Assembly: GCA_001917855.1 (NCBI GenBank)
Contig: MNEU01000086.1
Location: 1-60,920, forward strand
Direction of reading: 5' to 3'
Length of the DNA stretch: 60,920 nucleotides
Origin: Armatimonadetes bacterium 13_1_40CM_64_14
GTDB lineage: Bacteria > Sysuimicrobiota > Sysuimicrobiia > Sysuimicrobiales > Kaftiobacteriaceae
Shown here: piece after piece, positions 8,243 through 55,413 of the stretch
Layout of the letters: every line of letters starts with the position of its first letter
Numbering within the stretch: the stretch's first letter is position 1
The notes under the pieces: generated by a model
Told to the model about the DNA's origin: nothing
What the model saw: the letters and a program-made list of their open reading frames with translations, nothing else
Database searches by the model: none
Made by a program: the position numbers and the translations under genes

Positions 8243-8273
8243 CCCGATCCTGACGATGAGCAGGAGGTAAGGT

Positions 8274-36336: not shown

Positions 36337-36369
36337 TGGGCCGCACAGATTTTGCGTCAAGGAGCACCT

Positions 36370-37707
36370 GTGGACGAATCGTGGAGTACCCTCTCACAGC
36401 GGGTGAAGGCGAAACTGGGTCAGCCGCTTCCCGATCTCCCGCCCGGTGATCCCGCCACCCCCGAGTTCTTGGAGTTGCTGACGCGGTTACGCAAGACCGA
36501 CCCTGATCTAGCCGAGGCTGTGATCAACGCTTACACGGGGACGGTTGAACCGTTACCCTCAGAACTCGAGGCGGCAGCCGAACGACGGCGCCAGCGCTTG
36601 TACCAACGCCTCCTCGCGCGCTTCGTCCGTCCTGATGGGTTGCGGACAGGTCGTGTACGGCTGAACCTGAGAAAGACGATCAACTACGGCATCGCCGCCG
36701 CAGCAATTCTCCTCATCATCTGGTCGCTCGTTCCAAAATCGCCACAGCGGTACAGGACGACGCGACGCGGGGACGCGGCCGCCTCACAAAGCCGGCGGCA
36801 GGAGATCTTGCCGTCGTTGACGCTATCCCCTTCCCCATCGCGTGAGCCGCGCCCGAGACCGTCTCTCTTAACGGGCGCACCAGATGCCGCTGCGTTGACG
36901 ATCAGCCGACCTGGGATTGCGGCGTCCCACCTGATTCCAAACGCCACGCGGGCCTCCAATTCGCCCGTGCCAGTGCGCGGTTCGGCGCCGACGGTCACTC
37001 CATCCGTCGTTGTCTTTGAGACCAACCACCAGCAGAGCCAATCAGCTCCGCCTGCTGGAGGGCGGTCCGAAAATGACTCGCCACAACAACAGCCCGTGCC
37101 GGTGATTGTCTACGACTCAGGCGGCACCCTCGCGGCAGGCAGTCAACTTCCGCGCGTCCCGTCGGCACCCAGCGCCACGCACCCGGCCGTCCTGGCCATT
37201 TCCCGTGGGCAGTTGTTGGAAGGGAAACTCGTAACGCCTGCCGTCGTGAGTTCCTCACGCGGGAGCACGCCAACGCTCGTCGAGATCACCCAGGGAGCCT
37301 TGCAAGGCGCCGTGCTTTTAGGACAGGCGACTAGAGCGCCAGACGGACTTGTGTTAATTCAGTTCAACGGGTTGATCGCTAAGGACGGAAGAGAGCACTC
37401 GTTCAGAGGCACAGCCTACGACCCGGGGCTGGGCAGCGTAGGGATACGGGGCCAGACGACGACGATGATGCCCGACGCTTCTTCCGCGCTTCTCGGCGCA
37501 ACCATGCAGTCGGTTGGCGATTACTTCACAGCTCGTGCACGCCAGACGCAAGTTACCACCCCAGGGGGACAGCAGGGTCCCACCTTATGGGACGGACTTG
37601 CTTCCACCGTAGCACGCGCGTTTGCACCTAGTTCGGAGGTTCCGCCCGGACCAACTGTGGTGACGCGACTGGATCGCGGACAGATCGTAACGATCCTAGT
37701 CTTATAG
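36370..37707 (+). CDS. VirB10/TrbI/DotG-like type IV secretion core protein
   Basis: VirB10-type proteins span the envelope and carry energy signals to the outer-membrane pore. The 445-residue protein has a cytoplasmic N terminus, one membrane segment near residues 105-122 (YGIAAAAILLIIWSLV), a long Pro/Ser-rich periplasm-type linker, and a C-terminal beta domain (ISRGQLLEGKLVTPAVV, VEITQGALQGAVLLGQA, IQFNGLIAKDGREHSF, VVTRLDRGQIVTILVL) that follows the TrbI/DotG pattern. GTG 36370 has AAGGAG 5 bp before it; TTG 36352 is weaker. First gene of the operon. Confidence 0.78.
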   Translation: MDESWSTLSQRVKAKLGQPLPDLPPGDPATPEFLELLTRLRKTDPDLAEAVINAYTGTVEPLPSELEAAAERRRQRLYQRLLARFVRPDGLRTGRVRLNLRKTINYGIAAAAILLIIWSLVPKSPQRYRTTRRGDAAASQSRRQEILPSLTLSPSPSREPRPRPSLLTGAPDAAALTISRPGIAASHLIPNATRASNSPVPVRGSAPTVTPSVVVFETNHQQSQSAPPAGGRSENDSPQQQPVPVIVYDSGGTLAAGSQLPRVPSAPSATHPAVLAISRGQLLEGKLVTPAVVSSSRGSTPTLVEITQGALQGAVLLGQATRAPDGLVLIQFNGLIAKDGREHSFRGTAYDPGLGSVGIRGQTTTMMPDASSALLGATMQSVGDYFTARARQTQVTTPGGQQGPTLWDGLASTVARAFAPSSEVPPGPTVVTRLDRGQIVTILVL

Positions 37708-37731: not shown

Positions 37732-38052
37732 ATGCGCACACATCAGGTCGCATGGCTTGTGTTGATCTCCCTAGCGATTGTGAACATTTTCGCGACGCCG
37801 GTGGTTGCGCAGATCAGCACCGAGCAGGCATTGGGGCCTTTTCAGCAGTTCCTGCGCGGGCTGGTGATGTGGATGTTGGGCCCCGGGCGCCTTATTATCG
37901 CCGCGGCGTGGATTCTTTCCGGGTTTCGGGTTGTGCTAGGTATGGATCGGGGCGCGGGTCCCTTCGTTCTCGTCGCGCTGGTCGGCTTCGCCATCGTTTT
38001 CGCACCCCAGATCCTCGGTGCACTGGGCATCGATGTGAGCCCATACATCTAG
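37732..38052 (+). CDS. VirB2/TrbC-like pilin or channel subunit
   Basis: The 106-residue protein has a signal segment (VAWLVLISLAIVNIFATPVVAQ, cut likely after VAQ) and two further hydrophobic helices (LIIAAAWILSGFRVV; PFVLVALVGFAIVFAPQIL), the layout of VirB2/TrbC prepilins. Its place before the VirB3- and VirB4-like genes supports this. AAGGAGGACGCGC precedes the ATG. Confidence 0.8.
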   Translation: MRTHQVAWLVLISLAIVNIFATPVVAQISTEQALGPFQQFLRGLVMWMLGPGRLIIAAAWILSGFRVVLGMDRGAGPFVLVALVGFAIVFAPQILGALGIDVSPYI

Positions 38053-41145: not shown

Positions 41146-42104
41146 GAGGTGCGATCGTAGCGTTCGCTCTCGTCCTGACCGTCCTGGGAGCTGTCCCCGT
41201 AGAAGCTTCCTTGCCCGGAGGCGATTGGAACACAGAGGACGGTTTGCTCATATTCCTCAGTCAACTCCATCGGCAAATTGACGGGATTTTAGCCTGGATC
41301 GCAGGAGTCGCCGACTACTCGGAGGCGGCATTCCAGTCCCTCGCCCCCATTTTCGACCGTGCGTATAGCGCCCAAGTGCTCGCTCGGCGCATTGATGGCC
41401 TGGCCACGGGGGGACCGCGGCGGTTTCAGGAGGTCCTGCGCGGTTTTGCAGGCCGCCTGCGCACGATCCCCCTCCCGCGTCCTGGTACCCCCCGATGGGT
41501 CATTGAGCAAGTAATCCACGCATCCCCGCACGGAGAGACCGCCCAGCAAGCCCAGGCCCTCGATCAGGTCACTGAGGAAAATGTGGCTGCCCTTGCCACC
41601 GCGCTCAGCGCAACCGAGGCCGCGCGGATTGCGGCCTCTCAGATTGTCGATGATCTCAGCCCTCAAGCGCAGGCACAGGTGGCCATGTCCGCCGCGCGGG
41701 ACTTGGCAATCCGAGCTCAGTACACGCCCAGCACGCGCGCGGCCGTACAACTCCTGGTCGAAGCCATGGCCGCCCAGATCGACCTTCAGAGCCACACCGC
41801 CGAATCGGTCATCGGGCGGCAGACTGCGGCGATCCAACAGCAGACGCTCTTGAGCCTGCAGCTTGCGGCCGTGGTGGATCGGCTGGCAACTCTCAACGAC
41901 CAGGAAAACGCACACCAGAAGGACCGGTTAGCCCAGCACACCGCAGCAGGGGTCGGTCTTTTCGAGTCCCAACGCCAAACGTTCGCGGAGATCGCACAGA
42001 GCCTCCTGACGCTGAACTCGCTGCAACAACAGCAGGAGATGGATCGGTTCTTCGCCGTGTTGACCAAGGGGGTCGTGGGGCGTGCCGACGCTCTTCAGCC
42101 CTGA
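41142..42104 (+). CDS. VirB5/TrbJ-like secreted helical protein
   Basis: A signal peptide (IVAFALVLTVLGAVPVEA) leads a 320-residue, Gln/Ala-rich helical protein with TrbJ-like C-terminal repeats (AAIQQQTLLSLQLAAVVDRL; LLTLNSLQQQQEMD). Position between VirB4- and VirB6-like genes fits TrbJ/VirB5, which sits at pilus tips or in the periplasm. The name rests on layout as much as on sequence. Confidence 0.7.
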   Translation: MRGAIVAFALVLTVLGAVPVEASLPGGDWNTEDGLLIFLSQLHRQIDGILAWIAGVADYSEAAFQSLAPIFDRAYSAQVLARRIDGLATGGPRRFQEVLRGFAGRLRTIPLPRPGTPRWVIEQVIHASPHGETAQQAQALDQVTEENVAALATALSATEAARIAASQIVDDLSPQAQAQVAMSAARDLAIRAQYTPSTRAAVQLLVEAMAAQIDLQSHTAESVIGRQTAAIQQQTLLSLQLAAVVDRLATLNDQENAHQKDRLAQHTAAGVGLFESQRQTFAEIAQSLLTLNSLQQQQEMDRFFAVLTKGVVGRADALQP

Positions 42105-43155
42105 GGCGGCCGCTACGCGGCTTCAGGAGATCATAGTTGCCTCCGGAGCACAGGGCCATCTGCGAACTGTGGGCATCGGGATCTTGCTCTTCTTCTGTCT
42201 ACTCAACCTGTTTCGTGCGTTGTTGGCGGGCAGCGGTCCACTCGTCGTCGACGCATTCCTGCGCGCAGGGATCGCCGGATTGCTTGTACAGAATTCCGAT
42301 TGGATCGCCGTCGCCGCAGTCTCGTTTTTCCGCTTCATGCAGGCCATTGGAAGCCAGGTGAACGCTCAGTTTGGGGACTGGCAGACCGTAGCCGCCATCG
42401 ACCAGATCCTCCGTGATCTGTGGGGCGCGTTGTGGGCATCGTGGGACAGTGGACTCTTCAGCGCCCTCGGCAACCTCGGCGAGCACGTCGTATTCGGTCT
42501 CACCGCCGCGCTAACGACCATTTTGTTCGTGGTTTTTTACGTGGCGGCAATCGCCATCTACGACTTCCTCGTCTTCATGGCGCTGGTGACGCTCGTCCTT
42601 GCCACGCTCATTGCGCCCCTTTCCTTTGCATTTCTCGGTCATCGCTCGACGCAGTCGTTCGCCTTCGAATGGCTACAAGCGATACTCCACGCCTCGCTCG
42701 TTATTTTGCTGGCGCAGGCAATCGTGGGGATCGTGGTGAGCCTGGCGGTGGTGCAGCCGTTACGGGATTTTGTCGAAGTCGCACGGTCGGGTGGGACAAC
42801 GCTCGGTGTGATCAGGATCCCAGTCGAGGCGCTGATCGGGTTGGGGGTGGGGATCTTTGCTCTGCTAAATGTGCAAGGCCTCGCTAGCTCGTTTGTGGGT
42901 CGCGCTGAGTCGGTCGCGGGGGCGACTGTCGCCGCGTTCGTAGGAGCGCGTCTCGTGGGATCACTGCCGGGTGTCGTCTCAGGCTGGACCGCGAGCCGTG
43001 CCGCCACGCTGGCCGGGAGTAGGGACGGCGGCTACGGCGGACCTGGCCCCACGCCCCCCGCGGGGGGAGGAAGCAGCCCTCTCGGCGTCCCTCTCCCCGA
43101 TTCACCCTCCTCTGCCGCTACAGGGACTAGGGCCCCGCCCACGGGCCACACGTAG
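42082..43155 (+). CDS. VirB6/TrbL-like polytopic membrane protein
   Basis: The 357-residue protein has about six membrane segments (GIGILLFFCLLNLFRALLA; LTTILFVVFYVAAIAIYDFL; FMALVTLVLATLIAPLSFAF; VILLAQAIVGIVVSLAVV) and a Gly/Pro-rich tail, as in VirB6/TrbL, the channel-forming inner-membrane part. GTG 42082 lies 22 bp inside the preceding gene. Confidence 0.82.
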   Translation: MPTLFSPEAAATRLQEIIVASGAQGHLRTVGIGILLFFCLLNLFRALLAGSGPLVVDAFLRAGIAGLLVQNSDWIAVAAVSFFRFMQAIGSQVNAQFGDWQTVAAIDQILRDLWGALWASWDSGLFSALGNLGEHVVFGLTAALTTILFVVFYVAAIAIYDFLVFMALVTLVLATLIAPLSFAFLGHRSTQSFAFEWLQAILHASLVILLAQAIVGIVVSLAVVQPLRDFVEVARSGGTTLGVIRIPVEALIGLGVGIFALLNVQGLASSFVGRAESVAGATVAAFVGARLVGSLPGVVSGWTASRAATLAGSRDGGYGGPGPTPPAGGGSSPLGVPLPDSPSSAATGTRAPPTGHT

Positions 43156-43164
43156 CGTGCTGCG

Positions 43165-46100
43165 ATGCGTGATCCTACCTTCCCGTCCCGCCTCCCTGGA
43201 TGGAGCTTGATGATCAGTGCTCTGGTGGCCGGGCTCCTCGGCACGCACGTGTCAATGGTCGCATTCGCCCACTATGCCCTGGGAAATACTGAGAGCTGGA
43301 TCTGGGACCTCGCCAGCGGGGAGGGATGGCAGGTGGGAGCCGTCCTCGCGCGCTGTACGTCCACCACGCTATTCGCCAACTCGTCCCTGCCTAGCACCGC
43401 CGATTACCTGTGGTGCCGTCAGTGGTGGCTGATGTTTCACAGATGGACCGGCGGACCCGGCGGCTGGTTCTTCGGGGCGACAATGCTTCTCATCGTTGTG
43501 GGCGGAGCATCGGCCTACTTGTTCGCACTCACACGCCTCGTGCCCGAGGGACCCGCGCGCAGAAGAACGACCACCTATGCCACGCGCGACGAACTGCGCT
43601 CCTTCCTCCGTCCACGCGGCACCCCTCCCGAGGCGATGGCCGATGCGGGTGCCCTTCCCTTGGGCCACACGGTTCCTGACAAGGGCCGTCCCCATAGAGT
43701 CGACGTGTGGCTTCCGCTGCCCTATCGCTGCCAGCACATCTGGATCCTTGGGGTGACTGGCGTTGGCAAAACTAGCGGACTCATTAAACGGTGGCTCGCC
43801 ACGGACGCGCGCCTCGACGGCCGGCATGTCCCAGCCATGATGTCGACGGTCGCCGTCGATGTGAAGGACCCCGACCTGTGGGAGTTTGCGGCACCGATCG
43901 CCATGCAGTATGACCGTCGGGTAATCCGATGGTCCCCGATGAGTTCCGATAGCGCGGGGCACAATTTTCTCGACTATGTGCACACGGTGGGAGATGCATT
44001 GGACACGGCGGAAACAATTCTGAGCAACGACACGGAATACAACCGAAAAGACCCGTACTGGCGTCAAACCGAACTCACCATGCTCGCCACAACAATTCAA
44101 TTGGTCTGCGAGGAGAGTCCCGACCGCCTCCTGGGCACTTTCCTGCAGGACAAGATGCGTAACATTCTAGGAGTCGTCCCCCCACCCAGGTCGCTGGCGT
44201 TCATCCTTGGCCTGTCTCACCTCCACCCGTCGGAGTTCATGGCGTACATCGAGCACGTCGATGGCGGCCGGGCTGTCTGGCGCGATCGCTATTCCAAGGT
44301 GTTCCAAGCGCGCGACGACAAAACAGTCGGAGCATGGCAGGGTCTCCAAAACGTGCTGATCATCTTCCGCGACCCTGATGTCATCGCGGCGACAAGCCGG
44401 TCGGATTTCCACTTGTCGGTCGTCGCCCGCCAGCCCACGACCTTGATCATCGGTCTACCGCGTAAACCTGGTTCCCGTCGCCGGGTCCTCACGGCATTGT
44501 TCCTCCGGCAATTACTTCAAGAGCTTGATGACCTCGTCCGCGCGCGGGAATCCCAAAAGCTCCCGGTGCCGATAACCTTCCTTCTCGATGAGCTGGGAGT
44601 ACTTGGTCTAATCCCCACCTTTCAGGATTTCGTTGCGACATATCGGGACATGGGCGTGTCGTTCGTCATCGCGACGCAGGACCGCAAACAGCTAATCGAC
44701 GTGTACGGGGAAACAAAGGCGGATACCCTCATTGCCAATTTGCATACGCGGATCATCTTCGGGCGGGACCTGCGTCCGGAGCAGGCTGACGAAATCTGCC
44801 AGGCCCTCGGAGAAACAATCGTGCCCGAACCGGGCGTCCAATATGAGCACAAGAGTCCGCTGTCTATTGCACGCCGCGGGACGCGTATCGTGTATCAGGT
44901 CCGACGCCTGTTGGAGCCTAATGAGCTTCGGGCCATGCCCGAGTTCCGCGCCGTTGTCGTCTTGCCTGGCGACATCAAGGCGACCGTGGGCCTGTCGCCT
45001 GTACACACCGATCCTCTCTACCGCGGGATGACCCGCCGGATTAGTTCGATCGAAGCTCTCCGCCACGACATCCGTATGGACCGCGTGCTCGGTCGCCTGA
45101 CTGCGACACCTCGCATCAGATGCCCCTTAACGACTCTACCGCATCCAGGTGCCCTGGTGACTGCTGAGACACCCATCGAGCCCCCTCGTGGGCCCGCGAT
45201 CGGGACGGCTGATGACCTCGTTGACGAACTTCTCAAACTCCAGGACCCCGCTCCGCTCCCCAGGGATCAGTCCCTGCTTGAGAGCGGCGGAAGGACAGCG
45301 GCACCACCGAGCAAGCCGCGACAACTCCCCCCTACCGATCTACCCCCGCCAGCGCCAGTCGAAGAACCCGCTCCGCCCATCCTGGATTCGCCCGCCCCAC
45401 CATCGGGACCGTCTGCGACATTAGCCCCCGTAGTTGTGCGCCACCTCCGTCCCCCCGAGTCACCAATGGAAGCATTCGTGGAAACAGTCCTAAGCGGAAC
45501 GCTCCGGGATGAACGGCTCACCCCTGGAAGCCCACACGGATGGGTGTGCGCGGAGAGACGCAGCGAGTTTCTCGTGCCTTGGGGATTCTTGCGGGATTGG
45601 GGATTCAAAACGAAGCAACGGTTTACTGAACTAGAGGCCACATGGACGCGCGATGGACTGGTACGCGGGCGAGGGTCTGTCGTGGTGAACGGGCGATGGG
45701 TTACCTGTTTGCTATTCACCGAAACAGCAGCGTTACAACTACCTGAAGACCTCCGGGGCCTCCTTGCGCAATCGTTCGCGCCTGTTCCTGCGAACGAAGT
45801 GCGCCCTTCGAAAACGCGCGTGTTGATGCACGGGAATCCCGATCCCAGCGGGAGAGGCGGGAGTTCGCGCAGTACGCAGAGCTCCCCTCCTCTCCCCGAG
45901 CTTCGCGAGTTTCTGCGGGCACTTGACCAGGCCGGTCGTCACTTCATCGGGCACCCGGCTCGCGACGAGCAGTTACCAGTCCATGGCAGATGGCAGGCCC
46001 GCTCCAAAGACGGAAGCGTCGTATTGCTGGCGGAGCGTCACGTCGCAGAGGCAATGTTTAAGTCCATAGGAGTAATGGAAATCCGTAGAGTGCTCACGCA

Positions 46101-46248
46101 GTGGAGACAGGCAGGGATCCTGTTTCTCGGCGGACAGGTCCGAGGGGGGTTTTTCACCCGTAGGACTCACCGGGAGGGCAACGAGTTCTTGGCGCTACGA
46201 TGGGACCAGATCCGCTCGTTTCTCCCCCCGCAGGTCCCAAAGCTCTAA
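43165..46248 (+). CDS. VirD4/TraG-type coupling protein with a long C-terminal extension
   Basis: Coupling proteins bring the DNA-protein substrate to the secretion channel. Two membrane segments (about 12-38 and 99-122) precede the ATPase core: Walker A GVTGVGKTSGL near 196, Walker B FLLDELGVLGLIP near 473, and FVIATQDRKQLIDVYG. After about residue 640 comes an extra part: a Pro-rich linker (about 690-750) and two modules (VETVLSGTLRDERLTPG onward; LREFLRALDQAGRHFIG onward). At 1027 residues it is far longer than the usual 600-700. Confidence 0.9.
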   Translation: MRDPTFPSRLPGWSLMISALVAGLLGTHVSMVAFAHYALGNTESWIWDLASGEGWQVGAVLARCTSTTLFANSSLPSTADYLWCRQWWLMFHRWTGGPGGWFFGATMLLIVVGGASAYLFALTRLVPEGPARRRTTTYATRDELRSFLRPRGTPPEAMADAGALPLGHTVPDKGRPHRVDVWLPLPYRCQHIWILGVTGVGKTSGLIKRWLATDARLDGRHVPAMMSTVAVDVKDPDLWEFAAPIAMQYDRRVIRWSPMSSDSAGHNFLDYVHTVGDALDTAETILSNDTEYNRKDPYWRQTELTMLATTIQLVCEESPDRLLGTFLQDKMRNILGVVPPPRSLAFILGLSHLHPSEFMAYIEHVDGGRAVWRDRYSKVFQARDDKTVGAWQGLQNVLIIFRDPDVIAATSRSDFHLSVVARQPTTLIIGLPRKPGSRRRVLTALFLRQLLQELDDLVRARESQKLPVPITFLLDELGVLGLIPTFQDFVATYRDMGVSFVIATQDRKQLIDVYGETKADTLIANLHTRIIFGRDLRPEQADEICQALGETIVPEPGVQYEHKSPLSIARRGTRIVYQVRRLLEPNELRAMPEFRAVVVLPGDIKATVGLSPVHTDPLYRGMTRRISSIEALRHDIRMDRVLGRLTATPRIRCPLTTLPHPGALVTAETPIEPPRGPAIGTADDLVDELLKLQDPAPLPRDQSLLESGGRTAAPPSKPRQLPPTDLPPPAPVEEPAPPILDSPAPPSGPSATLAPVVVRHLRPPESPMEAFVETVLSGTLRDERLTPGSPHGWVCAERRSEFLVPWGFLRDWGFKTKQRFTELEATWTRDGLVRGRGSVVVNGRWVTCLLFTETAALQLPEDLRGLLAQSFAPVPANEVRPSKTRVLMHGNPDPSGRGGSSRSTQSSPPLPELREFLRALDQAGRHFIGHPARDEQLPVHGRWQARSKDGSVVLLAERHVAEAMFKSIGVMEIRRVLTQWRQAGILFLGGQVRGGFFTRRTHREGNEFLALRWDQIRSFLPPQVPKL

Positions 46249-46614: not shown

Positions 46615-47010
46615 ATGAATACTGTGGTGCTCATTGGTCGGTTGACCAGAGATCCGGAGCTGCGGCACGTGCCCAGTGGTCAGCCGGTAGCAAGCTTTAC
46701 ACTAGCTGTGGACCGGGCATTTACAACCGAGAGGGGAAGGGGCACGGCCGACTTTATCCCTGTTGTTGCTTGGCGCAAGTCCGCGGAGCTGGTGTCCATG
46801 TATTTGTCGAAGGGTCGCCTAGTGGCCGTGGAAGGCCGCCTGCACATTCGGTTCTACAAAGCACAGGACGGGCGGAGGCAGAAGGCCGCTGAGGTAGTGG
46901 CCAACCGTATCCAGTTTCTGGATCGTAAGAAGGGGAAGGATGTGCTAACTGTAGAGCAGCCAACGATTGACGCTGAGACGGATACGGGTGCCGAGGACGC
47001 TCCTGCATAG
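46615..47010 (+). CDS. ssb: Single-stranded DNA-binding protein (element copy)
   Basis: The 131-residue protein begins MNTVVLIGRLTRDPELRHVP and has VVAWRKSAELVSMYLSKGRL and VEGRLHIRFY, the SSB OB-fold signatures. The C terminus is acidic but ends AEDAPA, not the usual DDDIPF, so partner binding may differ. GAGGAGGTCC precedes the ATG. Being among transfer genes it probably coats element DNA during transfer or replication. Confidence 0.93.
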   Translation: MNTVVLIGRLTRDPELRHVPSGQPVASFTLAVDRAFTTERGRGTADFIPVVAWRKSAELVSMYLSKGRLVAVEGRLHIRFYKAQDGRRQKAAEVVANRIQFLDRKKGKDVLTVEQPTIDAETDTGAEDAPA

Positions 47011-47091: not shown

Positions 47092-47802
47092 ATGCTCAAC
47101 ATGTTTAGGAAAAGCACCCGCATGCGAGATCTCACTCTGGTCTCTGATGAGAGCCCACGAAACCGCCTTGCGGTCGCGGGACCTGCGGCTCTTGCGGTGC
47201 GGGAGTTGCTCGAGTTGATCCTTGGCAGAGGGAAGCTGAGGAAACAAGGTCGATGTCCTGCCGACGAACTCGCCGCTGCGTTTCCGTCTCTTTCCGCGTT
47301 AGACGCCGCAACTCTTGAGGATTTTGCCGCTATTGTCGGGCAGCACAATGCGGGAAGACTCGCCGCTGCCCTAGAGTTAGGACGGCGCATCCGGATTAGT
47401 GCTGTGGGTACCCGACCGGTCATCCAGACGGCAGTGGACGTATACCAGTTGCTGGGTTCTGAAATGGGAAGGCTCGATCGTGAACACTTCCGAACCATCT
47501 TGTTGAATACAAAAAATCGGGTAATCCGTGTGTGTACTGTCTCAATTGGTGGGCTGAGCCAAGCGCCCGTGCATCCGCGAGAGGTGTTTAAAGACGCCAT
47601 TAAGCATGGGGCATGTGCGATGATTGTGGTTCACAATCATCCATCGGGCGATGCTACGCCGAGTGCTGAGGACAATATGATCACGGACCAGCTCGCCGCG
47701 GCTGGTAAGCTGGTAGGTATCCCCCTACTTGACCATATCATCATCGGCGATGGACAGTATGTGAGTCTCCGCGAAAAGGGCCTCCTCTCCTCGCCCCCCT
47801 AG
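47092..47802 (+). CDS. radC: RadC-like JAB-domain protein
   Basis: RadC family proteins carry a JAB1/MPN metalloprotease-like fold. The 236-residue protein has a helix-hairpin-helix-like N half and the family motif HNHPSGDATPSAED near residue 180, holding the zinc ligands, with the upstream Glu in the APVHPREVFKDAIKHGA region. Element-borne copies are common in integrative elements and phages; role unproven. ATG 47104 or 47122 could also be the start. Confidence 0.92.
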   Translation: MLNMFRKSTRMRDLTLVSDESPRNRLAVAGPAALAVRELLELILGRGKLRKQGRCPADELAAAFPSLSALDAATLEDFAAIVGQHNAGRLAAALELGRRIRISAVGTRPVIQTAVDVYQLLGSEMGRLDREHFRTILLNTKNRVIRVCTVSIGGLSQAPVHPREVFKDAIKHGACAMIVVHNHPSGDATPSAEDNMITDQLAAAGKLVGIPLLDHIIIGDGQYVSLREKGLLSSPP

Positions 47803-48010
47803 CTGTGCGCGGTGTGGCGCAGGCGGTTCGTTAGGACATCCTCGGCTCATGATCTAGACCACTGAAGCCAGATCAACCTCCGATAGGATTCCGTGCTTTC
47901 CGCCGGTCGACGCTTAGTTGCCGTCTTGGACATATGTTGGGCGCTTCGGTGGCCAATGTTACTCTAAGCATTCTCGAGGAACTTTCAGTGGTCCACAGGG
48001 AGGGTTCAAA
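47803..48010 (+). promoter_or_regulatory. Leader with a 10-bp long-range inverted repeat before the second ATPase gene
   Basis: GACCACTGAA (47857-47866) and TTCAGTGGTC (47984-47993) are perfect complements separated by 117 bp. The right arm ends 4 bp before the GGGAGGG ribosome site at 47998-48004, so folding could close off a whole domain and influence translation of the gene at 48011. Confidence 0.5.
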
Positions 48011-50032
48011 GTGTGGGATCAGATTGTCATGTTGTGGCTGACCGCCATCTTTCTTAGTGTTATCGCGTGGTCCCGTGCTCGGGGCGCCAACAGGCGCCAA
48101 GCGATGAAGAGTGTTGTGCGACTCATTGGATACGGGGTGCCTATCGTGTTGGCGTGGGAATGGTTCGATGCATTGCCGCTTGGCGGGATCCTGGCCAAGA
48201 CGGCCCTCGTCGCCGGATTGCTATGGTGTCTAGCTTACCGCCTGTGGACCAGGGCGTTTCTCGCGTGGCGCATTCGGGGTCAGCAAGGCCAACGGCTCCG
48301 CGCTCTGGCTTCTGGGGAGCAAGATCCTCGGGATCTTGGCCGCCTCAAGTGGTCACAGGTCATCTATGACCGTGAACAAGCACTTGCTCCTTACCTGCGC
48401 GAAGAAGCAGGCGCTTACTGGCTGGCGCGTTCCGATCCGCTCCCGGGCAGGCGCTGGTTGGGACTGACGTTGTCTCGGGCGTACGATGTGGCAGTCCCAA
48501 AAGATCTCATGCTGCGCCATGTACTCATTCTTGGCTCGACCGGCGCGGGGAAAACACGCACGGCTCTGCAGGGGATCGTCGAGCAGCAGATCGCACGGGG
48601 ATTGGGCGCGCTTGTCCTGCAATTCAAGCACGACGAGCTATTTTACCGAAGCGTTCTAGATGCTGTTGCGCGCGCTGGCCGGGAAGCGGAGTGCATCTAC
48701 TTCAGCCTCCGAAGCGATGACGAGAGCCGAACGGCGGCCTGGAATCCCCTTGACTGGCCAAATTCAGCCGAGGTTGCTGAAGCTGTGGTGCACGCGACCC
48801 TCGATGATCTCGCCGCCCTACGCTATTTTGCCGCGCAAAATCTTGATGCGCTCGGGGTTGTCCTCGACGGCGCCAGGCGTCGGGGGGAAACGCTCAGCTT
48901 TGGGCGGCTGGCGGACCTGCTCGCACAAACCGGCCGATCGGGTGCCGGGCAGCCGCTCCTGGCGTACCTGCGGTCGTTTCCTGACCTACGAGCTCGGGCC
49001 CAGAGGGTGCGGTGGGATCACGCCAGTGAGCTCAAGATGCTGGCGGCGCAGTTGGGACGGTTTGCGGCCTTGACGCCGGCTCCGGGCCGCGTCGCGTTTG
49101 ACCTTCGGACCGCGGTGCAACAAGGGCAGGTCGTGTTGGTGAACCTGGATGCCACGACTTTCCCGAAGGCTGCGCGATGCGTGGGGCGGCTTTTCATCGC
49201 AGCGTTATCTGCCGCATATTCGGGCCTTCGGCGCACCGAGGACGACCGCGTCTATCTCGTTGCCCTCGATGAGTTTGGCCCTGTCGCCGGGCCGCATCTT
49301 TCAAGCATGCTGGGCACCGCGCGGGGGTTCGGGGTGAGTCTCGTGCTGGCAACGCAGAGTTTGGCGGACTTACGGATCGCGGGGCAACGAGAAGCTGCCG
49401 GGGCGCTTGCCGCTCAGGTCGTAGAAAACATTGGCACGCAGATCGTTTTTGGCCTCCGCAATCCCCAGGACGCAAAGTGGTGGTCGGAAGCCAGCGGCAG
49501 CGTCCTGCGTGACGAGATGACGGACGTACTCGTGGAGGGTCGTGCTGATCGGAACTACGTCAATCGACGACAGGCGTCGCAACGGGAATCGGCCGCCGTT
49601 TCGATCAACCAATTGCTCTTTACACCGCGGTCGAAGGCTTTCATTTGGATTCCATCACGGCGGTGCCTTCGTGCGCCGGGCAATCGATCAGCCTATCTGA
49701 ATCCAGAACCAGACCGTCGCAGCGTCATTCTGGGAAATTTCGTGCTTCCGTCCGATCCGAGTCCGTGGCCTCAGATCCGGGGCGGATGCATTGGAGGCAT
49801 GGGGCGGGCGCTTGCGGGGACCCAACCGATTCATCCGGTCATGCCCCACCAGCAAAGCACGTCGACATCGACGGAACCGGGGCATGCCGACCCGCCCCGC
49901 CTTTTTGGAGGGGGCGTGATTGGACGAACGTTGTTAGGGTCTATGACCTGCTCCATCGCTACCAGGGAAGGTACACGGTCACAACTTAGGGAGTGCAATG
50001 AATCCGACTCGGGAGGAGGGGTGAAGCAGTGA
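48011..50032 (+). CDS. Second TraG/TraD-like DNA-transfer ATPase
   Basis: The 673-residue protein has two N-terminal hydrophobic stretches (IVMLWLTAIFLSVIAW; a second near 45-75), Walker A LGSTGAGKTRTA near 174, Walker B YLVALDEFGPVAG near 416, and LVLATQSLADLR, a coupling-protein/TraM-recognition-type core. GTG 48011 follows GGGAGGG; the frame is open to 47918 but that part lies in the structured leader. A last 60 residues are Ser/Thr/Gly-rich. It overlaps the next gene by 4 bp. Confidence 0.85.
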   Translation: MWDQIVMLWLTAIFLSVIAWSRARGANRRQAMKSVVRLIGYGVPIVLAWEWFDALPLGGILAKTALVAGLLWCLAYRLWTRAFLAWRIRGQQGQRLRALASGEQDPRDLGRLKWSQVIYDREQALAPYLREEAGAYWLARSDPLPGRRWLGLTLSRAYDVAVPKDLMLRHVLILGSTGAGKTRTALQGIVEQQIARGLGALVLQFKHDELFYRSVLDAVARAGREAECIYFSLRSDDESRTAAWNPLDWPNSAEVAEAVVHATLDDLAALRYFAAQNLDALGVVLDGARRRGETLSFGRLADLLAQTGRSGAGQPLLAYLRSFPDLRARAQRVRWDHASELKMLAAQLGRFAALTPAPGRVAFDLRTAVQQGQVVLVNLDATTFPKAARCVGRLFIAALSAAYSGLRRTEDDRVYLVALDEFGPVAGPHLSSMLGTARGFGVSLVLATQSLADLRIAGQREAAGALAAQVVENIGTQIVFGLRNPQDAKWWSEASGSVLRDEMTDVLVEGRADRNYVNRRQASQRESAAVSINQLLFTPRSKAFIWIPSRRCLRAPGNRSAYLNPEPDRRSVILGNFVLPSDPSPWPQIRGGCIGGMGRALAGTQPIHPVMPHQQSTSTSTEPGHADPPRLFGGGVIGRTLLGSMTCSIATREGTRSQLRECNESDSGGGVKQ

Positions 50033-50856
50033 CTGACCTGACAGTTAAGCAAGCTGTTCAGGCAGACCGTGATCCGGATGTGCTCGTCTGGCTTGCGCGT
50101 CTGCAACTAGCGACTTCTGGACAGATTTCGGCGTTGGGATGGCCCGGGGATGGTGATGAGTGCAAGAAGAGACGGCTGCGCGAGGTACGAGAAGCCGGGC
50201 TGCTCGAATTTGTTCGCACTCGTCGTCGCACAGGACACCGTCTAGCCTTGTACCGCCTCACCCCAGTGGGCGCTGTCGCGGCAGCAAGGCTCATCGGCGA
50301 TGACCAGGTCATCCGTGGAGTCCGCCTTGCGGCCACAGAGGGAATTCATCTGGAACATCGGCTCCAGGTGAATGATACCGTTCTCCGGCTAGCCGATTGC
50401 TTCGGACGAGATGCGGTGGAAGTACTGCTTCCGCACCAAAGGCGCTTACGATGGCTAATATCGGGTGGAGCGTGGCACGAGGTCACCCCCGACGTTGTGT
50501 TGGTGTGTCGCAAGGCGGACGCGGCGCTCGTAATCGAGTACGACCGCGGGCTACGGAGTGTCGACAGCGTTTCTCTGCAGCTGCGACGCTATCGGGAAGC
50601 GGCCGAGCAACCAGATCTTCCCATGTGGGCGGGGCGATCGTCTATCGCATACGCGCTCCACCCTCCCTCGCCCGCGCGGGCAAGTGCGATTCTGCAAGCG
50701 GCAGCGGCCGCTGGGCTGGAGTCGCGTGTAGTCGTCGTCGCTGTCCAGGATCTGGCCTTGGTCGTCGCGGATGCTTTCGCGAAAACGCACGCGGCGTCTC
50801 CCGGACCGGCTCCGGATCCGGGATTAGAATCTCCGCCGATCGGTGCGCATTTTTGA
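50029..50856 (+). CDS. Winged-helix protein of the replication-relaxation type
   Basis: The 275-residue protein has a winged helix in residues about 18-90 (WLARLQLATSGQISALGWP, REVREAGLLEFVRTRRRTGH, YRLTPVGAVAAARL) and a C-terminal fold with HLEHRLQVNDTVLRLAD, EVTPDVVLV and LVIEYDRG, the Asp-X-Val/Glu-Tyr-Asp pattern of a nuclease-like domain in the family. It is translationally coupled to the second ATPase, which suggests that the two act together on element DNA. Confidence 0.75.
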   Translation: MTDLTVKQAVQADRDPDVLVWLARLQLATSGQISALGWPGDGDECKKRRLREVREAGLLEFVRTRRRTGHRLALYRLTPVGAVAAARLIGDDQVIRGVRLAATEGIHLEHRLQVNDTVLRLADCFGRDAVEVLLPHQRRLRWLISGGAWHEVTPDVVLVCRKADAALVIEYDRGLRSVDSVSLQLRRYREAAEQPDLPMWAGRSSIAYALHPPSPARASAILQAAAAAGLESRVVVVAVQDLALVVADAFAKTHAASPGPAPDPGLESPPIGAHF

Positions 50857-50983: not shown

Positions 50984-52390
50984 ATGGCTCTCGTGCACGC
51001 AGTTGGAGCGCTCCTGACGCATAGTGCAGCGGTGACCGAACGGCATCCGTTCGATGCAGCTGTGGTGATCGTCGGTTGTCTGCTCCCGCGAATTTTCCCG
51101 TTGACTGTTGGGAGGGATCTCTACTGGACGGCATGGTGGATTCTTTTGGTTTGCTGGGCCGTGGGCGGCGCTGAGGGTACCGTTTTGTGGGACAAGGTGC
51201 GCAGGACGCCTTCGCCGCAGGAACCCGGGTGGTGGTCTAGGCTGTGCGTGCGCACCGGTGAATGCGCCCGGCGGATTGCAGGTAGAGTCGGCGCGAGAAC
51301 TCTAGGTGCGGGCGCCCCTATCCCTGCCAATATTCTCACGGCCCCGAGGTTGTCCGAGGCAATCCAATCAGAAGTGTGCGCCGTTAGTCCAGAGGTGAGG
51401 GTTGAGTGGGTTGGACAACCCCAGACTGGAGCGGATAGGCATGTGTCTGACCTGAGGCGCCTCCTCACGGTCGAGGCGACGTTGAAGGCGCGGATCGTGG
51501 GGCAGGATCACGTCGCGGCCGCTATCACTAAAGCCCTTTTGCGGCGCGCAGTAGACAGCGATTCACGCCGGCCGGTGCTGTCGGTCCTCGCGGCAGGACC
51601 GACAGGTGTAGGCAAGTCGGAAACGGCAAAGGCGCTAGCCGAAATCCTGGATCGACCGCTGCTCGCCTACGACATGGCAAGCTTTGGGGAGCAGCACACC
51701 GTAGCGGCGTTGATCGGCGCCCCGCCAGGGTATGCGGGTGCCGAACGGTGTGGGCGGCTCGTAGCGGATGTGCAGCGTCACCCCAACGCTGTAGTCCTGT
51801 TAGATGAGATCGATAAAGCGCACCCCACATTGCTTGATCCATTCATGCGAGTCTTCGAAGATGGGCAGTTTACCGAACTTTCCCGGGGAGAGAGTGCAAA
51901 CTTCGGCGACACGGTCGTCATCGCAACCACCAACCTGCTCCAGCGTGAAGCGACTATCTCATGGAGCGACGACCCTGCCCAGGTGCGGCGGATGCTGCTC
52001 CAGGCACGTGCCGGCTACCCAGAGGGTCCGAGCCGTAGCTTTAGCCTGCGGCCTGAGTTGATTGCTCGTCTTGACATCACAATTCTATACAGGCCGTTAT
52101 CCGCCGCAGTTGTGGAGCGTATTGCGCACGAATACGTTCCTGCCTTCGTCCACCGTATCACGACACAGATGGGAATCCACCCGGAGGTTACAGTGGATGC
52201 TCGGTTGGTGGATGAGATCATCGGCCGTTTGGATCTCCAGTTCGGCGTTCGTGAACTCAAACGCGTGGTGGGGGAAAGACTGGGCGACGCGCTGGTGGAG
52301 GGCTATCTCCCATGGATGATGCGCGGTGAGATCCCGGTCGCGGTTGAGGTCAGAGCGACCAGCGGTCAGATTACGGCTGTATTCCGGTGA
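50984..52390 (+). CDS. Membrane-anchored single-ring Clp-type AAA+ unfoldase
   Basis: The core matches the second ATPase domain of ClpA/ClpB: Walker A GPTGVGKSETAKAL near 205, pore loop GYAG near 249, Walker B VVLLDEIDKAHP near 271, sensor 1 VVIATTNL, the arginine-finger region FSLRPELIARLD, and sensor 2 GVRELKRVVGERL. In front are hydrophobic stretches at about 26-63 (AAVVIVGCLLPRIF; WWILLVCWAVGG) and a linker, with no first ATPase ring and no ClpN domain. ATG 50984 follows AAGGAGG. The role is likely unfolding of a transfer substrate or machine part. Confidence 0.85.
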   Translation: MALVHAVGALLTHSAAVTERHPFDAAVVIVGCLLPRIFPLTVGRDLYWTAWWILLVCWAVGGAEGTVLWDKVRRTPSPQEPGWWSRLCVRTGECARRIAGRVGARTLGAGAPIPANILTAPRLSEAIQSEVCAVSPEVRVEWVGQPQTGADRHVSDLRRLLTVEATLKARIVGQDHVAAAITKALLRRAVDSDSRRPVLSVLAAGPTGVGKSETAKALAEILDRPLLAYDMASFGEQHTVAALIGAPPGYAGAERCGRLVADVQRHPNAVVLLDEIDKAHPTLLDPFMRVFEDGQFTELSRGESANFGDTVVIATTNLLQREATISWSDDPAQVRRMLLQARAGYPEGPSRSFSLRPELIARLDITILYRPLSAAVVERIAHEYVPAFVHRITTQMGIHPEVTVDARLVDEIIGRLDLQFGVRELKRVVGERLGDALVEGYLPWMMRGEIPVAVEVRATSGQITAVFR

Positions 52391-52399
52391 GGTGATGAT

Positions 52400-53011
52400 A
52401 TGCAAATCTTGGCACGAGTGAGTACATTTGCGATTGTCGGTCTCTTCTTGCTCAATGTCGCGTTGGGAGTCATTGAAGAGGTTGTTACGCATCGTGTCCA
52501 CCGGGGGGAGGCCCAGGGCGCGGGACTGCCCCGATCGGCAGGGCGAGGGTCACGCCCAGTGACGGACCTCGGGGAGGCGCTTACCGCAGATGTGCACTTC
52601 TTTGCGAACCGCGTCGTGATCGATGTGGAGGCCAAGAGGGTTCTCCGCACGCAGAGGGACTTGCGATTTGATCTGCTAGTTACTCCCCGTGCGGTTGACG
52701 GGTTCGTCATTCTCCCGATGGATCGGTTAGCGGTGGATGGGGCGAAGACTGCAATTGTCACAGAGGACGGATCTTGGCTCCACGTGAAGGCTGTATACGG
52801 CGTGGGATTGGTCTTCGATAGCGAAGTCCGTCGCAGTTCTCCAGTCTACGCGATTGGTGTGCCACGACAGGTGGAGTTGGTGTTCCCCGCCCCCTCATCG
52901 AGCAGGCGTGCAACACTACTTGTGAGGTGGGCTCCGGGAAAGGCAGTCGTGTACGCACAGGGCTGGCGAGTGGACAGGATTTTGGAAGTTTCCCTCCCCC
53001 CTCAGCCATAA
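52400..53011 (+). CDS. Membrane-anchored protein of unknown function next to the Clp-like gene
   Basis: The 203-residue protein has one N-terminal hydrophobic segment (VSTFAIVGLFLLNVALGVI) and then a beta-rich part (LTADVHFFANRVVIDVEAKR, LRFDLLVTPRAVDGFVILPM, RRATLLVRWAPGKAVVY) that would lie outside the cytoplasmic membrane. I recognise no family. It starts 9 bp after the AAA+ gene, behind GAGGTGAT, so the two are probably co-translated partners. Confidence 0.65.
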   Translation: MQILARVSTFAIVGLFLLNVALGVIEEVVTHRVHRGEAQGAGLPRSAGRGSRPVTDLGEALTADVHFFANRVVIDVEAKRVLRTQRDLRFDLLVTPRAVDGFVILPMDRLAVDGAKTAIVTEDGSWLHVKAVYGVGLVFDSEVRRSSPVYAIGVPRQVELVFPAPSSSRRATLLVRWAPGKAVVYAQGWRVDRILEVSLPPQP

Positions 53012-53284: not shown

Positions 53285-53932
53285 ATGAGCACCTTGACAA
53301 AGGAAAGCAGCAGTCCCGTAAAGGTCGCGCAAGTCTTTGCCGACTTCAGGCTCGGTCTGCCTCGTATGGGTACCGTCTTCGTGAGTGCGCGCCGACACAG
53401 GGTCCAGGTGTCCTGGACCGCCAAGGGGCTAAGGGGAATGTGTAAAAAGTGCACACGCCAAGATGGGTGTGCTGCGGTCTTCGATGCCATTCGCGCGGTG
53501 GAGATCTTGGCTGAGGCGTGGGAGCGTCCTCCGATCAGTCGCATCCAGGCCCGCGTTGAGGCAGATATTCAGTCGGACCCGTTGACCGAACCGGAGCAGC
53601 CCAGAATCCGTCCGTACGATGGACTAGCCAGGGATATTTGCCAGGCGGACCTAGTGCCAATCCACATACCGCCTTGGGCGTACGACGAGCAGGGCACCCG
53701 ACGTCCGGTCGTCGACGCCGAGATCGCTGAAGACGTTTGGTACGAGCTGCAGCACAGGCTAAATCGCCTACTCGGCTATCGGATCCATGCGGAGACGAGC
53801 TACCGTCCTCCTGTCCACAAGTACTACCAGGCAAGCTGGGAGCTGGATCGGGGGATGACGCACGCTGCATTCAAGCTTGATCTCCTGACAGACCTCGATG
53901 AGGATGGGCAGCTCGATGCGTTTGCGCCGTGA
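53285..53932 (+). CDS. Protein of unknown function upstream of the primase
   Basis: ATG 53285 follows GGAGGAG and gives 215 residues. The first 75 hold a small cysteine group (GMCKKCTRQDGCAAVFDAI) near residue 57, possibly metal-binding; the rest is charged, with many Pro and Tyr (IPPWAYDEQGTRRPVVD; YRPPVHKYYQASWELD). I know no family. The frame is open to 53039, but that part is A/T-rich and lacks coding character. Its stop overlaps the primase start by 4 bp, so it may be a replication partner. Confidence 0.68.
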   Translation: MSTLTKESSSPVKVAQVFADFRLGLPRMGTVFVSARRHRVQVSWTAKGLRGMCKKCTRQDGCAAVFDAIRAVEILAEAWERPPISRIQARVEADIQSDPLTEPEQPRIRPYDGLARDICQADLVPIHIPPWAYDEQGTRRPVVDAEIAEDVWYELQHRLNRLLGYRIHAETSYRPPVHKYYQASWELDRGMTHAAFKLDLLTDLDEDGQLDAFAP

Positions 53933-55413
53933 ACGGAGACTGCGGGCGATCCACGTCTACGGCGGCCCCTCATGGCGTGCCGGAACCCGGCCGCCGTCCG
54001 ATGCCCCGGGAGCCCGACCCGCCGGAGCCTTCGGCGGCGAGGCAGTGGGATTACCCACACGAAGCACTCTGGGAACCCAAGGTTTTGATGCCGACAGCAG
54101 TTGAATCAGTTCTGGGCGAAATTCGCGAACGTCTGCCGCTCACCAAGTACCTCGTGAGCAAGGGCTTCAAGCTGCGGCAGACGGGACGGAATCGCATGGT
54201 CGCGCTCTGTCCATTCCATGCCGACAAGCGGCGGCCAAACATGGTCATTTACACGGATGAACACCGTTTTCACTGCTACTGCTGCGGGGCTAGGGGTGAC
54301 GTCGTCGATATGGCGCGCTGTCTGGACGGCTACCTCAATTTCACAACAGCGCTGCGGGCGCTAGCAGCTAGCGTTGGGCTGTCCTTGCCCCATGGTCGTC
54401 CACAGATTAGTGAGGATAGGGGTGGGATCCTCACGCTGGCTGCGAAGTTGTACGCAGAGCATTTGGGTTCTGACGTGCTTGCATACCTCGGACGCCGGGG
54501 TTTTCCCGAGGCATTCGTGCGAAAGTGGCGCATCGGCTACGCCCCCCAGAAATCACCCCAGCTCCTGCGAGACTTCCTCAGGCAGCACACCGTTGCACCG
54601 GAGGCAGCACTGGCTTCTGGCGTACTGATCGAGGCAGGCGCCCGGGACGGGCGCCTGCTGCGCGACTTCTTCGGGAACGGCGGCGGCGGGTATATCGTCT
54701 TCCCCAACCCGGCACGCGACGGAGGTATCATCGACCTGCAAGGCCGCGCTTTTCCCAACGGTAGCAACAAGCCGAAGTACCTTAACTTGCCCAAGGGCCG
54801 ACGTTACCTCTTCAACGAGAGCATCGTGCCGCGGTCGTCCGTCATTCTCACTGAGGGAATCCCCGACGCTTTGAGTTGTCTCCTGGTCGACCAACCTGCC
54901 GTTGCAGTCTATGGAACGAGCGGTTTCTCAGACCGGTCCGTGAATCAGTTCGTTCTGTGCCGCCGCATTTACGTCGCTTTCGACCTGGACGCTCACCGTC
55001 ATAGCGTCGAGATTGCCATGCAGTTTGGATTGCGCGGCCGCGTGGTCATGTTACCGGAGTCGCTCGGCCGCAACGGCGACCTGAACGACTTTCTCATGCA
55101 GCGTGGTGCCGCGTCGTTCAGTAACGACCTGACGCAGCTGCTTCAAACTGCCGACACCGGTTACGGAGCGGCTATCAACGAGCTGCCTACGGATCTCCAG
55201 CCCTACGACCTATTCGAGAGCGCCACGTCGCTGTTGGCTGCATTGGGAGCGGTAGATCCGATAAGCCGAGACGTGTATCTTCAGAGGTTACACGTCAAAT
55301 ACGGCATCGCGATGGACACTCTCCGCGACGCGGCAAGGGAGGCGCTGTTCATGACGCCCAGCACGACATTTTCCGGGACGTCGCTCGGGGTGGCCGATCC
55401 TACGGGCCATTAG
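53929..55413 (+). CDS. DnaG-like primase (element copy)
   Basis: The primase lays RNA primers for DNA synthesis, here probably for the strand made after transfer. The 494-residue protein has a CHC2 zinc finger (CPFH near 94, HCYCC near 115), the catalytic-domain start (YLGRRGFPEAFVRKWRIGYA), and Toprim acidic motifs (VILTEGIPDALS near 308; VAFDLDAH near 351). The C-terminal 90 residues are short, without the usual DnaB-binding region. About 50 extra residues precede the finger; the internal ATG at 54001 or 54088 could be the true start. Confidence 0.9.
   Translation: MNGDCGRSTSTAAPHGVPEPGRRPMPREPDPPEPSAARQWDYPHEALWEPKVLMPTAVESVLGEIRERLPLTKYLVSKGFKLRQTGRNRMVALCPFHADKRRPNMVIYTDEHRFHCYCCGARGDVVDMARCLDGYLNFTTALRALAASVGLSLPHGRPQISEDRGGILTLAAKLYAEHLGSDVLAYLGRRGFPEAFVRKWRIGYAPQKSPQLLRDFLRQHTVAPEAALASGVLIEAGARDGRLLRDFFGNGGGGYIVFPNPARDGGIIDLQGRAFPNGSNKPKYLNLPKGRRYLFNESIVPRSSVILTEGIPDALSCLLVDQPAVAVYGTSGFSDRSVNQFVLCRRIYVAFDLDAHRHSVEIAMQFGLRGRVVMLPESLGRNGDLNDFLMQRGAASFSNDLTQLLQTADTGYGAAINELPTDLQPYDLFESATSLLAALGAVDPISRDVYLQRLHVKYGIAMDTLRDAAREALFMTPSTTFSGTSLGVADPTGH

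What the first reader, a model, noticed from the sequence alone, without database searches (positions are those of the whole stretch)
50984..53011. Membrane-anchored Clp-type AAA+ unfoldase with a membrane partner inside a conjugation-type locus
The 50984 protein carries only the second-ring ClpB/ClpA ATPase, complete with pore loop, arginine-finger region and sensor 2, fused to N-terminal hydrophobic segments instead of the usual first ring. The next gene encodes a single-pass, beta-rich protein with no known family. ClpV-type motors belong to type VI secretion; a Clp-type motor tied to the membrane among type IV genes is not something I know as described. It may unfold proteins for export, or take apart the channel or relaxosome.
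Basis: partly seen in the sequence, partly recalled or inferred. Interest (0 to 1): 0.72.

Follow-up and report, generated by a model that had tools for sequence, protein, structure and literature searches.

The report
Membrane-tethered Clp motor beside a relaxase
A mobile element in an unnamed bacterium carries, behind its likely DNA-nicking relaxase gene, a protein-pulling ring motor that lacks half of the usual Clp architecture and has a predicted membrane anchor instead, which makes it a candidate for the enzyme that strips or unfolds the relaxase during DNA transfer.

Summary
ORF 50984-52390 is a 468-aa protein with one Clp/HSP100 second-ring (D2) AAA+ domain, motifs intact, and a predicted N-terminal membrane hairpin in place of ClpN, D1 and M domains. 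ORF 52400-53011 follows after 9 nt, has one predicted membrane segment and matches no family. The reading shifts in one respect: the pair goes with a CloDF13-like MobB coupling protein and a MOB_C-type (Replic_Relax) relaxase, not with the secretion channel. A second copy in the same genome (contig C31; 54-67% identical) keeps the order MobB-MobC-AAA-partner, hairpin included. Related channel operons in two other genomes lack it on the stretches read, and none of 14 other MOB_C loci in the phylum has an AAA_2 gene on its contig. No ortholog turned up in 385 other sampled genomes, or in plasmid, phage and GTDB-contig searches. Best explanation (0.40): a membrane-docked ring that pulls on the MobC relaxosome, stripping or unfolding the relaxase for hand-over. 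Nothing shows the substrate. A 2018 paper and a 2019 review call the relaxase unfoldase unknown, so a knock-out would be informative. New variant of a known kind; narrow base (two copies, one 77%-complete genome).

The parts
50984..52390 (+). Single-ring Clp-type (D2) AAA+ ATPase with predicted N-terminal membrane hairpin, 468 aa
50966..50973 (+). Likely ribosome-binding site AAGGAGGT of the AAA+ gene
   Evidence: read from sequence
51047..51175 (+). Predicted membrane hairpin, aa 22-64, conserved in the paralog
51596..51616 (+). Walker A GPTGVGK (aa 205-211)
51716..51739 (+). Pore loop GAPPGYAG (aa 245-252)
51797..51814 (+). Walker B LLDEID (aa 272-277)
52067..52069 (+). Putative arginine finger R362 (LIARLD)
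52244..52252 (+). Sensor 2 GVR (aa 421-423)
52400..53011 (+). Partner: 203-aa protein with one N-terminal membrane segment, no known family; 9 nt after the AAA+ stop (8 nt in C31)
50029..50856 (+). MOB_C-type relaxase candidate (Replic_Relax PF13814, 57 bits, cut-off 25.3) with a PD...ExD motif
47918..50032 (+). MobB-like coupling ATPase (TrwB_AAD_bind); overlaps the relaxase gene by 4 nt
53285..53932 (+). Unknown protein kept downstream in both copies (ORF listed from 53039; start 53285 inferred from C31)
53929..55413 (+). DnaG-like primase (CHC2 zinc finger, Toprim)
43165..46248 (+). VirD4-type coupling protein (second T4CP of the element)
42082..43155 (+). VirB6/TrbL-like channel protein
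38380..41145 (+). VirB4/TraC-like ATPase
37732..38052 (+). VirB2/TrbC-like pilin, below the Pfam cut-off (22.3 of 27.9 bits)
36352..37707 (+). VirB10/TrbI-like, weak (E 0.0056, 17 of 35 bits)
46615..47010 (+). Single-strand DNA-binding protein
47092..47802 (+). RadC-like protein

Best explanation
The 50984 protein is a membrane-docked, single-ring Clp-type protein translocase that belongs to the relaxase (mob) module of this element. Shown by sequence: one D2-type AAA+ domain with ATPase and pore-loop motifs, a hydrophobic N-terminal hairpin, and the same place behind MobB-like and MobC-like genes in both copies, with a partner gene 8-9 nt downstream. Inferred: it forms a hexamer at the inner face of the membrane near the MobB ring, its partner helps to place or regulate it, and it threads the MobC relaxase (or a relaxosome partner) through its pore. 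That pull would strip MobC from oriT and/or unfold it, so that relaxase and single strand can be handed to MobB and the type IV channel. The predicted topology (two membrane helices, then a cytoplasmic ring) resembles a coupling protein, but the motor is of the protein-pulling kind.
For: Motor motifs and fold. Hairpin conserved at 56% while the linker is only 21% identical. Two copies in one genome, both in the order MobB-MobC-AAA-partner and then, after a PIN-like gene (by eye) in C31, a u297 homologue; purifying selection. AAA and partner are 8-9 nt apart in both copies. MobB resembles the coupling protein of a Pantoea plasmid whose next gene is annotated MobC replication-relaxation (27% over 405 aa). 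The canonical ClpP-docking tripeptide is replaced by ISW/LAW (motif recalled), which points to remodelling rather than degradation. Relaxases must unfold for transfer, and the unfoldase was described as unknown in 2018 and 2019 (PMC5826034 passages; PMC6362355 passages).
Against: No substrate, oligomer or activity is shown. None of 14 other MOB_C loci in the phylum has an AAA_2 gene on its contig, so it is not a general need of MOB_C transfer. A 127-nt (window) or about 285-nt (C31) gap separates MobC from AAA, so co-transcription with the relaxase is not certain. Only two copies, one genome. No covalent intermediate has been seen for MOB_C relaxases (PMC12857230 passages), so it is open whether the relaxase is exported at all. 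VirB4, VirD4 and MobB are alternative motors in the same element.
Confidence: 0.4

Rival explanations
1. Membrane-protein quality control or assembly factor: the ring extracts or remodels membrane proteins of the element (T4SS subunits, MobB, or its own partner), in the manner of FtsH or Msp1 (recalled) but without a protease.
For: Predicted membrane hairpin and adjacent membrane partner; no canonical ClpP tripeptide.
Against: The fixed neighbours are MobB and MobC, not the channel genes; channel relatives in G010 and G028 have no such gene on the stretches read.
Confidence: 0.22
2. Element-encoded defence, immunity or exclusion device: ring plus membrane sensor guard the host or element against phage or a second element.
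For: Short ClpB-like profiles occur in candidate defence systems (PADLOC DolB 375 positions, 70.5 bits; PDC-M37B 390 and 518 positions, 87.1 and 80.5 bits), and the MobB-like neighbour matches mad8 (45.9 bits) and, weakly, HerA.
Against: The AAA matches cover the AAA part only and are far weaker than those to ClpA/ClpB D2 (about 180 bits); 52400, 53039 and 50029 match no PADLOC model (five proteins scanned); the mad8/HerA matches are what a coupling-type ATPase would give (inference).
Confidence: 0.15
3. Membrane-tethered adaptor for host ClpP: the ring feeds relaxase or regulators to the protease.
For: A hydrophobic tripeptide (ISW/LAW) stands where a Clp protein of the same genome carries IGF (L003).
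Against: The glycine of the [LIV]-G-[FL] motif (recalled) is missing in both copies.
Confidence: 0.1
4. Ordinary stress chaperone carried as cargo, placed beside mob genes by chance.
For: Plasmids often carry Clp genes (2241 of 72,556 plasmid records have a match; clpK and clpB among the 40 rows listed).
Against: Same order in two copies that differ at 45% of residues; no D1, ClpN or M domain; no close relative in the searches made.
Confidence: 0.08

Closest known systems
ClpB/ClpC/ClpA second ring (D2)
   Same: AAA_2 fold, Walker A/B, GAPPGY pore loop, arginine finger, sensor 2; 36-37% identity to the genome's own two Clp proteins, 25-45% in other comparisons
   Different: No first ring, no ClpN or M domain; predicted N-terminal membrane hairpin instead; scores 5- to 7-fold below the ClpA, ClpB and ClpV cut-offs
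CloDF13-type MobB/MobC (MOB_C) mobilisation module
   Same: Coupling ATPase followed by a Replic_Relax protein; described in PMC7431656 and PMC12857230 (passages)
   Different: Here an AAA+ motor and a membrane partner follow; the element also has its own VirD4 and channel genes
T6SS ClpV/TssH
   Different: Two rings and cytosolic in T6SS (recalled); no type VI gene was recognised among the 30 window ORFs given to Pfam; 161 bits against a cut-off of 885
Single-D2 Clp proteins: human CLPB/SKD3, torsins (recalled), DolB
   Same: One D2 ring with a different N-terminal part; CLPB/SKD3 chains match at 2.8e-29 to 3.6e-25
   Different: Ankyrin repeats (PMC9934407, abstract start in a listing) or a lumenal location (recalled) in the eukaryotic ones; none that I know of is tied to a relaxase operon
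VirD4-type coupling proteins (TrwB)
   Same: Two N-terminal membrane helices and a bulky cytosolic domain (PMC7431656 passage)
   Different: A DNA motor (recalled), not a Clp protein motor; no sequence relation claimed

Membership tests
ClpA/ClpB/ClpC (two-ring HSP100) | D2 AAA+ domain with complete motifs | tested here: met
ClpA/ClpB/ClpC (two-ring HSP100) | First AAA+ ring (D1), ClpN and M domain | tested here: not met
   One AAA stretch; 468 aa; no Pfam match before aa 192 at E 0.001
ClpA/ClpB/ClpC (two-ring HSP100) | NCBIfam equivalog cut-off | tested here: not met
   180.6 of 993 (ClpA), 178.8 of 1232 (ClpB) bits
ClpP partner unfoldase | [LIV]-G-[FL] loop | tested here: not met
   ISW and LAW at the aligned place; motif recalled
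ClpX | NCBIfam ClpX cut-off | tested here: not met
   28.2 of 359 bits
T6SS ClpV/TssH | Family cut-off | tested here: not met
   161.4 of 884.95 bits
Dodola DolB (defence) | DolB match plus its defence partner beside it | tested here: not met
   AAA-only match, 70.5 bits; no Dodola partner among 5 proteins scanned; 47918 matches mad8/HerA instead
MOB_C mobilisation module (for 47918 and 50029) | Replic_Relax family over the Pfam cut-off | tested here: met
   57 bits, cut-off 25.3; C31 copy 60.9 bits
MOB_C mobilisation module (for 47918 and 50029) | Coupling ATPase adjacent to the relaxase | tested here: met
   4-nt overlap; TrwB_AAD_bind; 27% to a Pantoea homologue
MOB_C mobilisation module (for 47918 and 50029) | PD-(D/E)XK-type active site | tested here: inconclusive
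   TPD...(I/L)EYD in both copies; IPD...LELD and VPD...LELD in two phylum relatives; the E and D of ExD align, the PD is shifted by one column in MAFFT and aligned with a gap in BLAST; third residue is D, not K; no reference MobC or TraX was aligned
MOB_C mobilisation module (for 47918 and 50029) | Nicks oriT | not testable with these tools
   needs biochemistry
Integrative and conjugative element | Integrase and att repeats | tested here: inconclusive
   No integrase recognised among 30 scanned ORFs, not every ORF was scanned; longest exact repeat pairing the tRNA-Sec region with 18-56 kb is 12 nt
Integral membrane AAA+ protein | N-terminal transmembrane helices | tested here: inconclusive
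   Hydropathy supports two helices; AlphaFold gives helices there with block-mean pLDDT 44-62; no experiment

The most novel reading that the evidence does not exclude
The 50984 ring is a dedicated conjugative relaxase unfoldase: a protein-pulling coupling motor that docks beside the DNA-pulling MobB ring and supplies the ATP-driven unfolding step whose enzyme was still called unknown in the 2018 paper and 2019 review whose passages I read.
Probability: 0.2. Interest if true: 0.87.

Novelty: new variant of a known kind. Interest (0 to 1): 0.6.

Why it matters
Relaxases must be unfolded to pass a conjugative channel, and the enzyme that does it was described as unknown (PMC5826034 of 2018, PMC6362355 of 2019; passages; later work may have answered it). 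A Clp-type motor encoded next to a relaxase is a concrete, deletable candidate in one lineage. It would also show a Clp ring re-used as a membrane-fixed part of a DNA-transfer machine. If it strips MobC from DNA instead, it would be a parallel to remodelling of transposase complexes by ClpX (recalled).

Tried and rejected
Rejected: (1) link to the channel genes as such. (2) TssH, ClpX or plasmid ClpK membership. The longest plasmid matches (six Azospirillum records, 82% of the query at 32%) were checked in two of the six: both lie in 880-aa frames with D1 and D2 motifs, so they are two-ring Clp genes; the other plasmid and phage rows were not opened. (3) Other single-ring Clp genes in the phylum: the seven AAA_2 frames under 660 aa among matches of 175 bits or more were re-read; five touch a contig end, one (G025) has a stop between D1 and D2 and one (G030) has D1 and D2 in different frames, so none is a demonstrated single-ring gene. 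The 90-129-bit classes are taken as ClpX and HslU by length and number per genome only (inferred). (4) Of 22 genome contigs relatives none matches the query before residue 130; 20 lie in frames of 650 aa or more (not each checked for a D1), one of which, L046, is a 63-residue match without Clp motifs. The two short ones look like broken two-ring genes: L035 has D1 just upstream behind a stop; L034 has unknown bases and, upstream in another frame, a stretch that reads like a Clp N-terminal part by eye, without the D1 motif string.

Led nowhere: AlphaFold of the partner; a guess that it is a DUF4352-like domain (recalled; at E up to 10 gave no match); its topology (flanking charges look ambiguous by eye, so whether its main domain faces the ring or the outside is open); viral-contig scans; partner in plasmids and phages; MobC in plasmids by tblastn (no match); the CloDF13 record shows no entry named mobB or mobC; RNA fold around the MobC-AAA gap (z 0.43); att repeats. 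Weak partner hits not followed: G040 (E 7.7e-4, 31% over 67 aa; not returned) and an ORF of G032 near a MOB_C locus (27% over 97 aa, blastp E 8e-4 in a tiny database; not returned by tblastn).
Full report
WHAT IS THERE. The window is contig C56 of an unnamed 2.08-Mb genome (95 contigs, 77% complete). Left of about 34 kb lie host-type genes (MutS, MutL, MiaA, HflX-like GTPase, LexA, PaaA/PaaC, DinB, GGDEF). Right of 56.8 kb the ORFs read as an ABC sugar transporter (by eye, not scanned), next to a tRNA-Sec gene (56483-56572, minus strand, Rfam 79 bits). Between them is a mobile region with somewhat lower third-position GC: weak VirB10/TrbI-like, VirB2-like, an unknown gene, VirB4, another unknown gene, VirB6/TrbL, VirD4, SSB, RadC, then MobB-like, MobC-like, the AAA+ gene, its partner, an unknown gene, a DnaG-like primase and an antitoxin/PIN pair.

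THE AAA+ PROTEIN. It starts at ATG 50984 behind AAGGAGGT and has 468 residues. Its AAA+ part (about aa 153-456) matches only the second ring of ClpA (180.6 bits), ClpB (178.8) and ClpV (161.4), all far below the family cut-offs. Solved relatives are ClpC and ClpB, aligned over D2 (Foldseek, isolated ClpB NBD2 chains with target-normalised TM 0.75-0.82). Walker A, pore loop, Walker B, sensor 1, the arginine in LIARLD/LIARID and sensor 2 are present in both copies. At the place of the ClpP-binding IGF tripeptide stand ISW and LAW (motif recalled). The best single window of this copy (aa 37-55, -8.65) straddles the two segments, and the scale also flags one core window weakly (-0.38), so two helices are a prediction. 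A third, more N-terminal stretch is hydrophobic by Kyte-Doolittle only. AlphaFold puts helices at aa 2-20, 22-37 and 46-63 with low confidence (block means 44-62) and models most of the AAA part well (blocks mostly 80-94, with dips to 55 near aa 321-360).

THE PARTNER. ORF 52400-53011 begins 9 nt after the AAA+ stop (8 nt in C31). It has one clear membrane segment (aa 7-25). It matches nothing in Pfam even at E 10, nor NCBIfam, PHROGs or PADLOC. The structure prediction failed (pLDDT 35), so 'beta-rich' stays a guess. The C31 partner has a second hydrophobic window near aa 160-178 (-6.34) that the window copy lacks (+0.37).

THE SECOND COPY. Contig C31 (10.7 kb) of the same genome carries MobB (cut by the contig start), MobC, AAA, partner, a PIN-like gene (by eye), and a homologue of 53039. 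Identities are MobB 67%, MobC 65-66%, AAA 54-55%, partner 58-59% and u297 58%. The composition of C31 resembles the host's (tetranucleotide correlation 0.89 with the left flank). Within the AAA protein the hairpin region is 56% identical (36 of 64), the linker 21% (18 of 86) and the AAA part 64% (203 of 316): anchor and motor are both under constraint, the tether is not. dN is 0.36 and dS 1.75.

IDENTITY OF THE NEIGHBOURS. 50029 is a Replic_Relax protein (57 bits, cut-off 25.3). In a Pantoea plasmid the same pair, coupling ATPase then 'MobC family replication-relaxation protein', is annotated, and the window's 47918 protein is 27% identical to that ATPase over 405 aa. 47918 also matches the PADLOC models mad8 (45.9 bits) and, weakly, HerA. 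A 2025 review assigns MobC of CloDF13 and TraX of pAD1 to MOB_C, related to PD-(D/E)XK nucleases, and notes that no covalent intermediate was seen (PMC12857230, passages); MobB is the CloDF13 coupling protein (PMC7431656, passages). The window protein has TPD...IEYD, comparable with PD...LELD of two phylum relatives. I did not align a reference MobC or TraX, and the general equation of PF13814 with MOB_C partly rests on recall.

DISTRIBUTION. AAA: 1 of 43 phylum genomes, this one, with 2 copies (E 1e-50 or better); 1 of 386 sampled relatives, again this one, the set including phylum members and at most 4 candidates being scored in each listed genome (E 1e-52); 0 of 185 in another phylum (E 1e-55); 0 of 1. 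Two genome-contig scans gave 32 pattern matches with 0 relatives and 70 pattern matches with 22 relatives, none reaching the N-terminal part. Plasmids: 2241 records match, 7 cover 80% or more, all below 60% identity; the 40 rows seen are 32-37% identical and, where a feature is named, clpK or clpB; two of the six best-covered were opened and are two-ring. Phages: 146 records, none covering 80%; not opened. These scans use thresholds or short patterns and could miss distant orthologs. Partner: this genome only in 386 at E 0.001. MobB: 1 of 43 at E 1e-20. MOB_C (PF13814): 14 of 43 genomes, 16 loci; comparing contig numbers (AAA_2 at E 1e-20), the 2 loci of this genome have an AAA_2 gene on the contig and 0 of the other 14 do, though at least three of the 14 (G005, G023 C15, G024) lie within 1 kb of a contig start. 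Of 3 such loci read in more detail, L101 and L102 show a Replic_Relax gene directly beside a coupling protein (27-28% to VirD4), L100 has a coupling protein and SSB at the locus, and none shows an AAA relative. VirD4: 9 of 43 at E 1e-20, the nearest 41% identical in G010. G010's 13-kb contig has VirB6, VirD4 and SSB relatives but no MobB, MobC or AAA. G028's contig C11 has VirB10, VirB4 (34% over 919 aa), VirB6, VirD4 and SSB relatives within 19 kb and no match to MobB, MobC, AAA or partner there. So the channel operon is shared across families of the phylum without the motor.

HOW IT PROBABLY WORKS. Shown: motor motifs, a hydrophobic N-terminal anchor region, gene order. Inferred: a hexameric ring at the inner membrane pulls on MobC or its complex. 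Two variants remain: stripping MobC off oriT, or unfolding it for export. Work on R388 shows that the relaxase must unfold for transfer and says it is unclear which unfoldase does it (PMC5826034, 2018, passages); a 2019 review lists the unfoldase as an open question and suggests VirB11 perhaps (PMC6362355, passages). No VirB11-like gene was recognised among the 30 window ORFs given to Pfam. Against the idea: MOB_C loci elsewhere in the phylum have no such gene nearby.

NOVELTY. Ten paper searches, seen as listings, with passages of four papers, and limited to open-licence papers, showed no description of a Clp-type motor in a relaxase operon; most listed papers were not opened. Single-ring D2 proteins are known (human CLPB; short DolB-type profiles in PADLOC). 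I therefore file it as a new variant of a known kind, not a new kind.

Noticed in passing
56483-56572 (-): tRNA-Sec gene whose 3' end faces the mobile region, as in tRNA-end integration (recalled), but no integrase was recognised and no matching repeat was found.
   Followed up: partly
35580-36299 (-): Second Replic_Relax-like protein below the Pfam cut-off (22 of 25.3 bits) at the left edge of the element, pointing the other way; 35078-35683 (-) beside it is unknown.
   Followed up: partly
43165-46248 and 47918-50032: The element has two coupling ATPases, a VirD4 type with the channel genes and a MobB type with the relaxase, as if a mob module had been added to a channel module that G010 and G028 carry without it.
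   Followed up: partly
53039-53932: The listed ORF start is probably 246 nt too early; the homologue in C31 begins at the residue encoded at 53285. The protein has a cysteine pattern that recalls SWIM fingers (recalled, not tested).
   Followed up: partly
L106 (G025:C115): A regular Clp gene interrupted by one in-frame stop between its two rings; error or real was not checked.
   Followed up: no
L022 (G021:C12, about 7783-8313): Fragments 48-69% identical to the C-terminal part of the window's VirD4 stand alone there, as if this domain also occurs separately or the gene is decayed.
   Followed up: no
L020 9698-10456 (C31): 252-aa protein with a cysteine-rich motif (by eye), not scanned.
   Followed up: no
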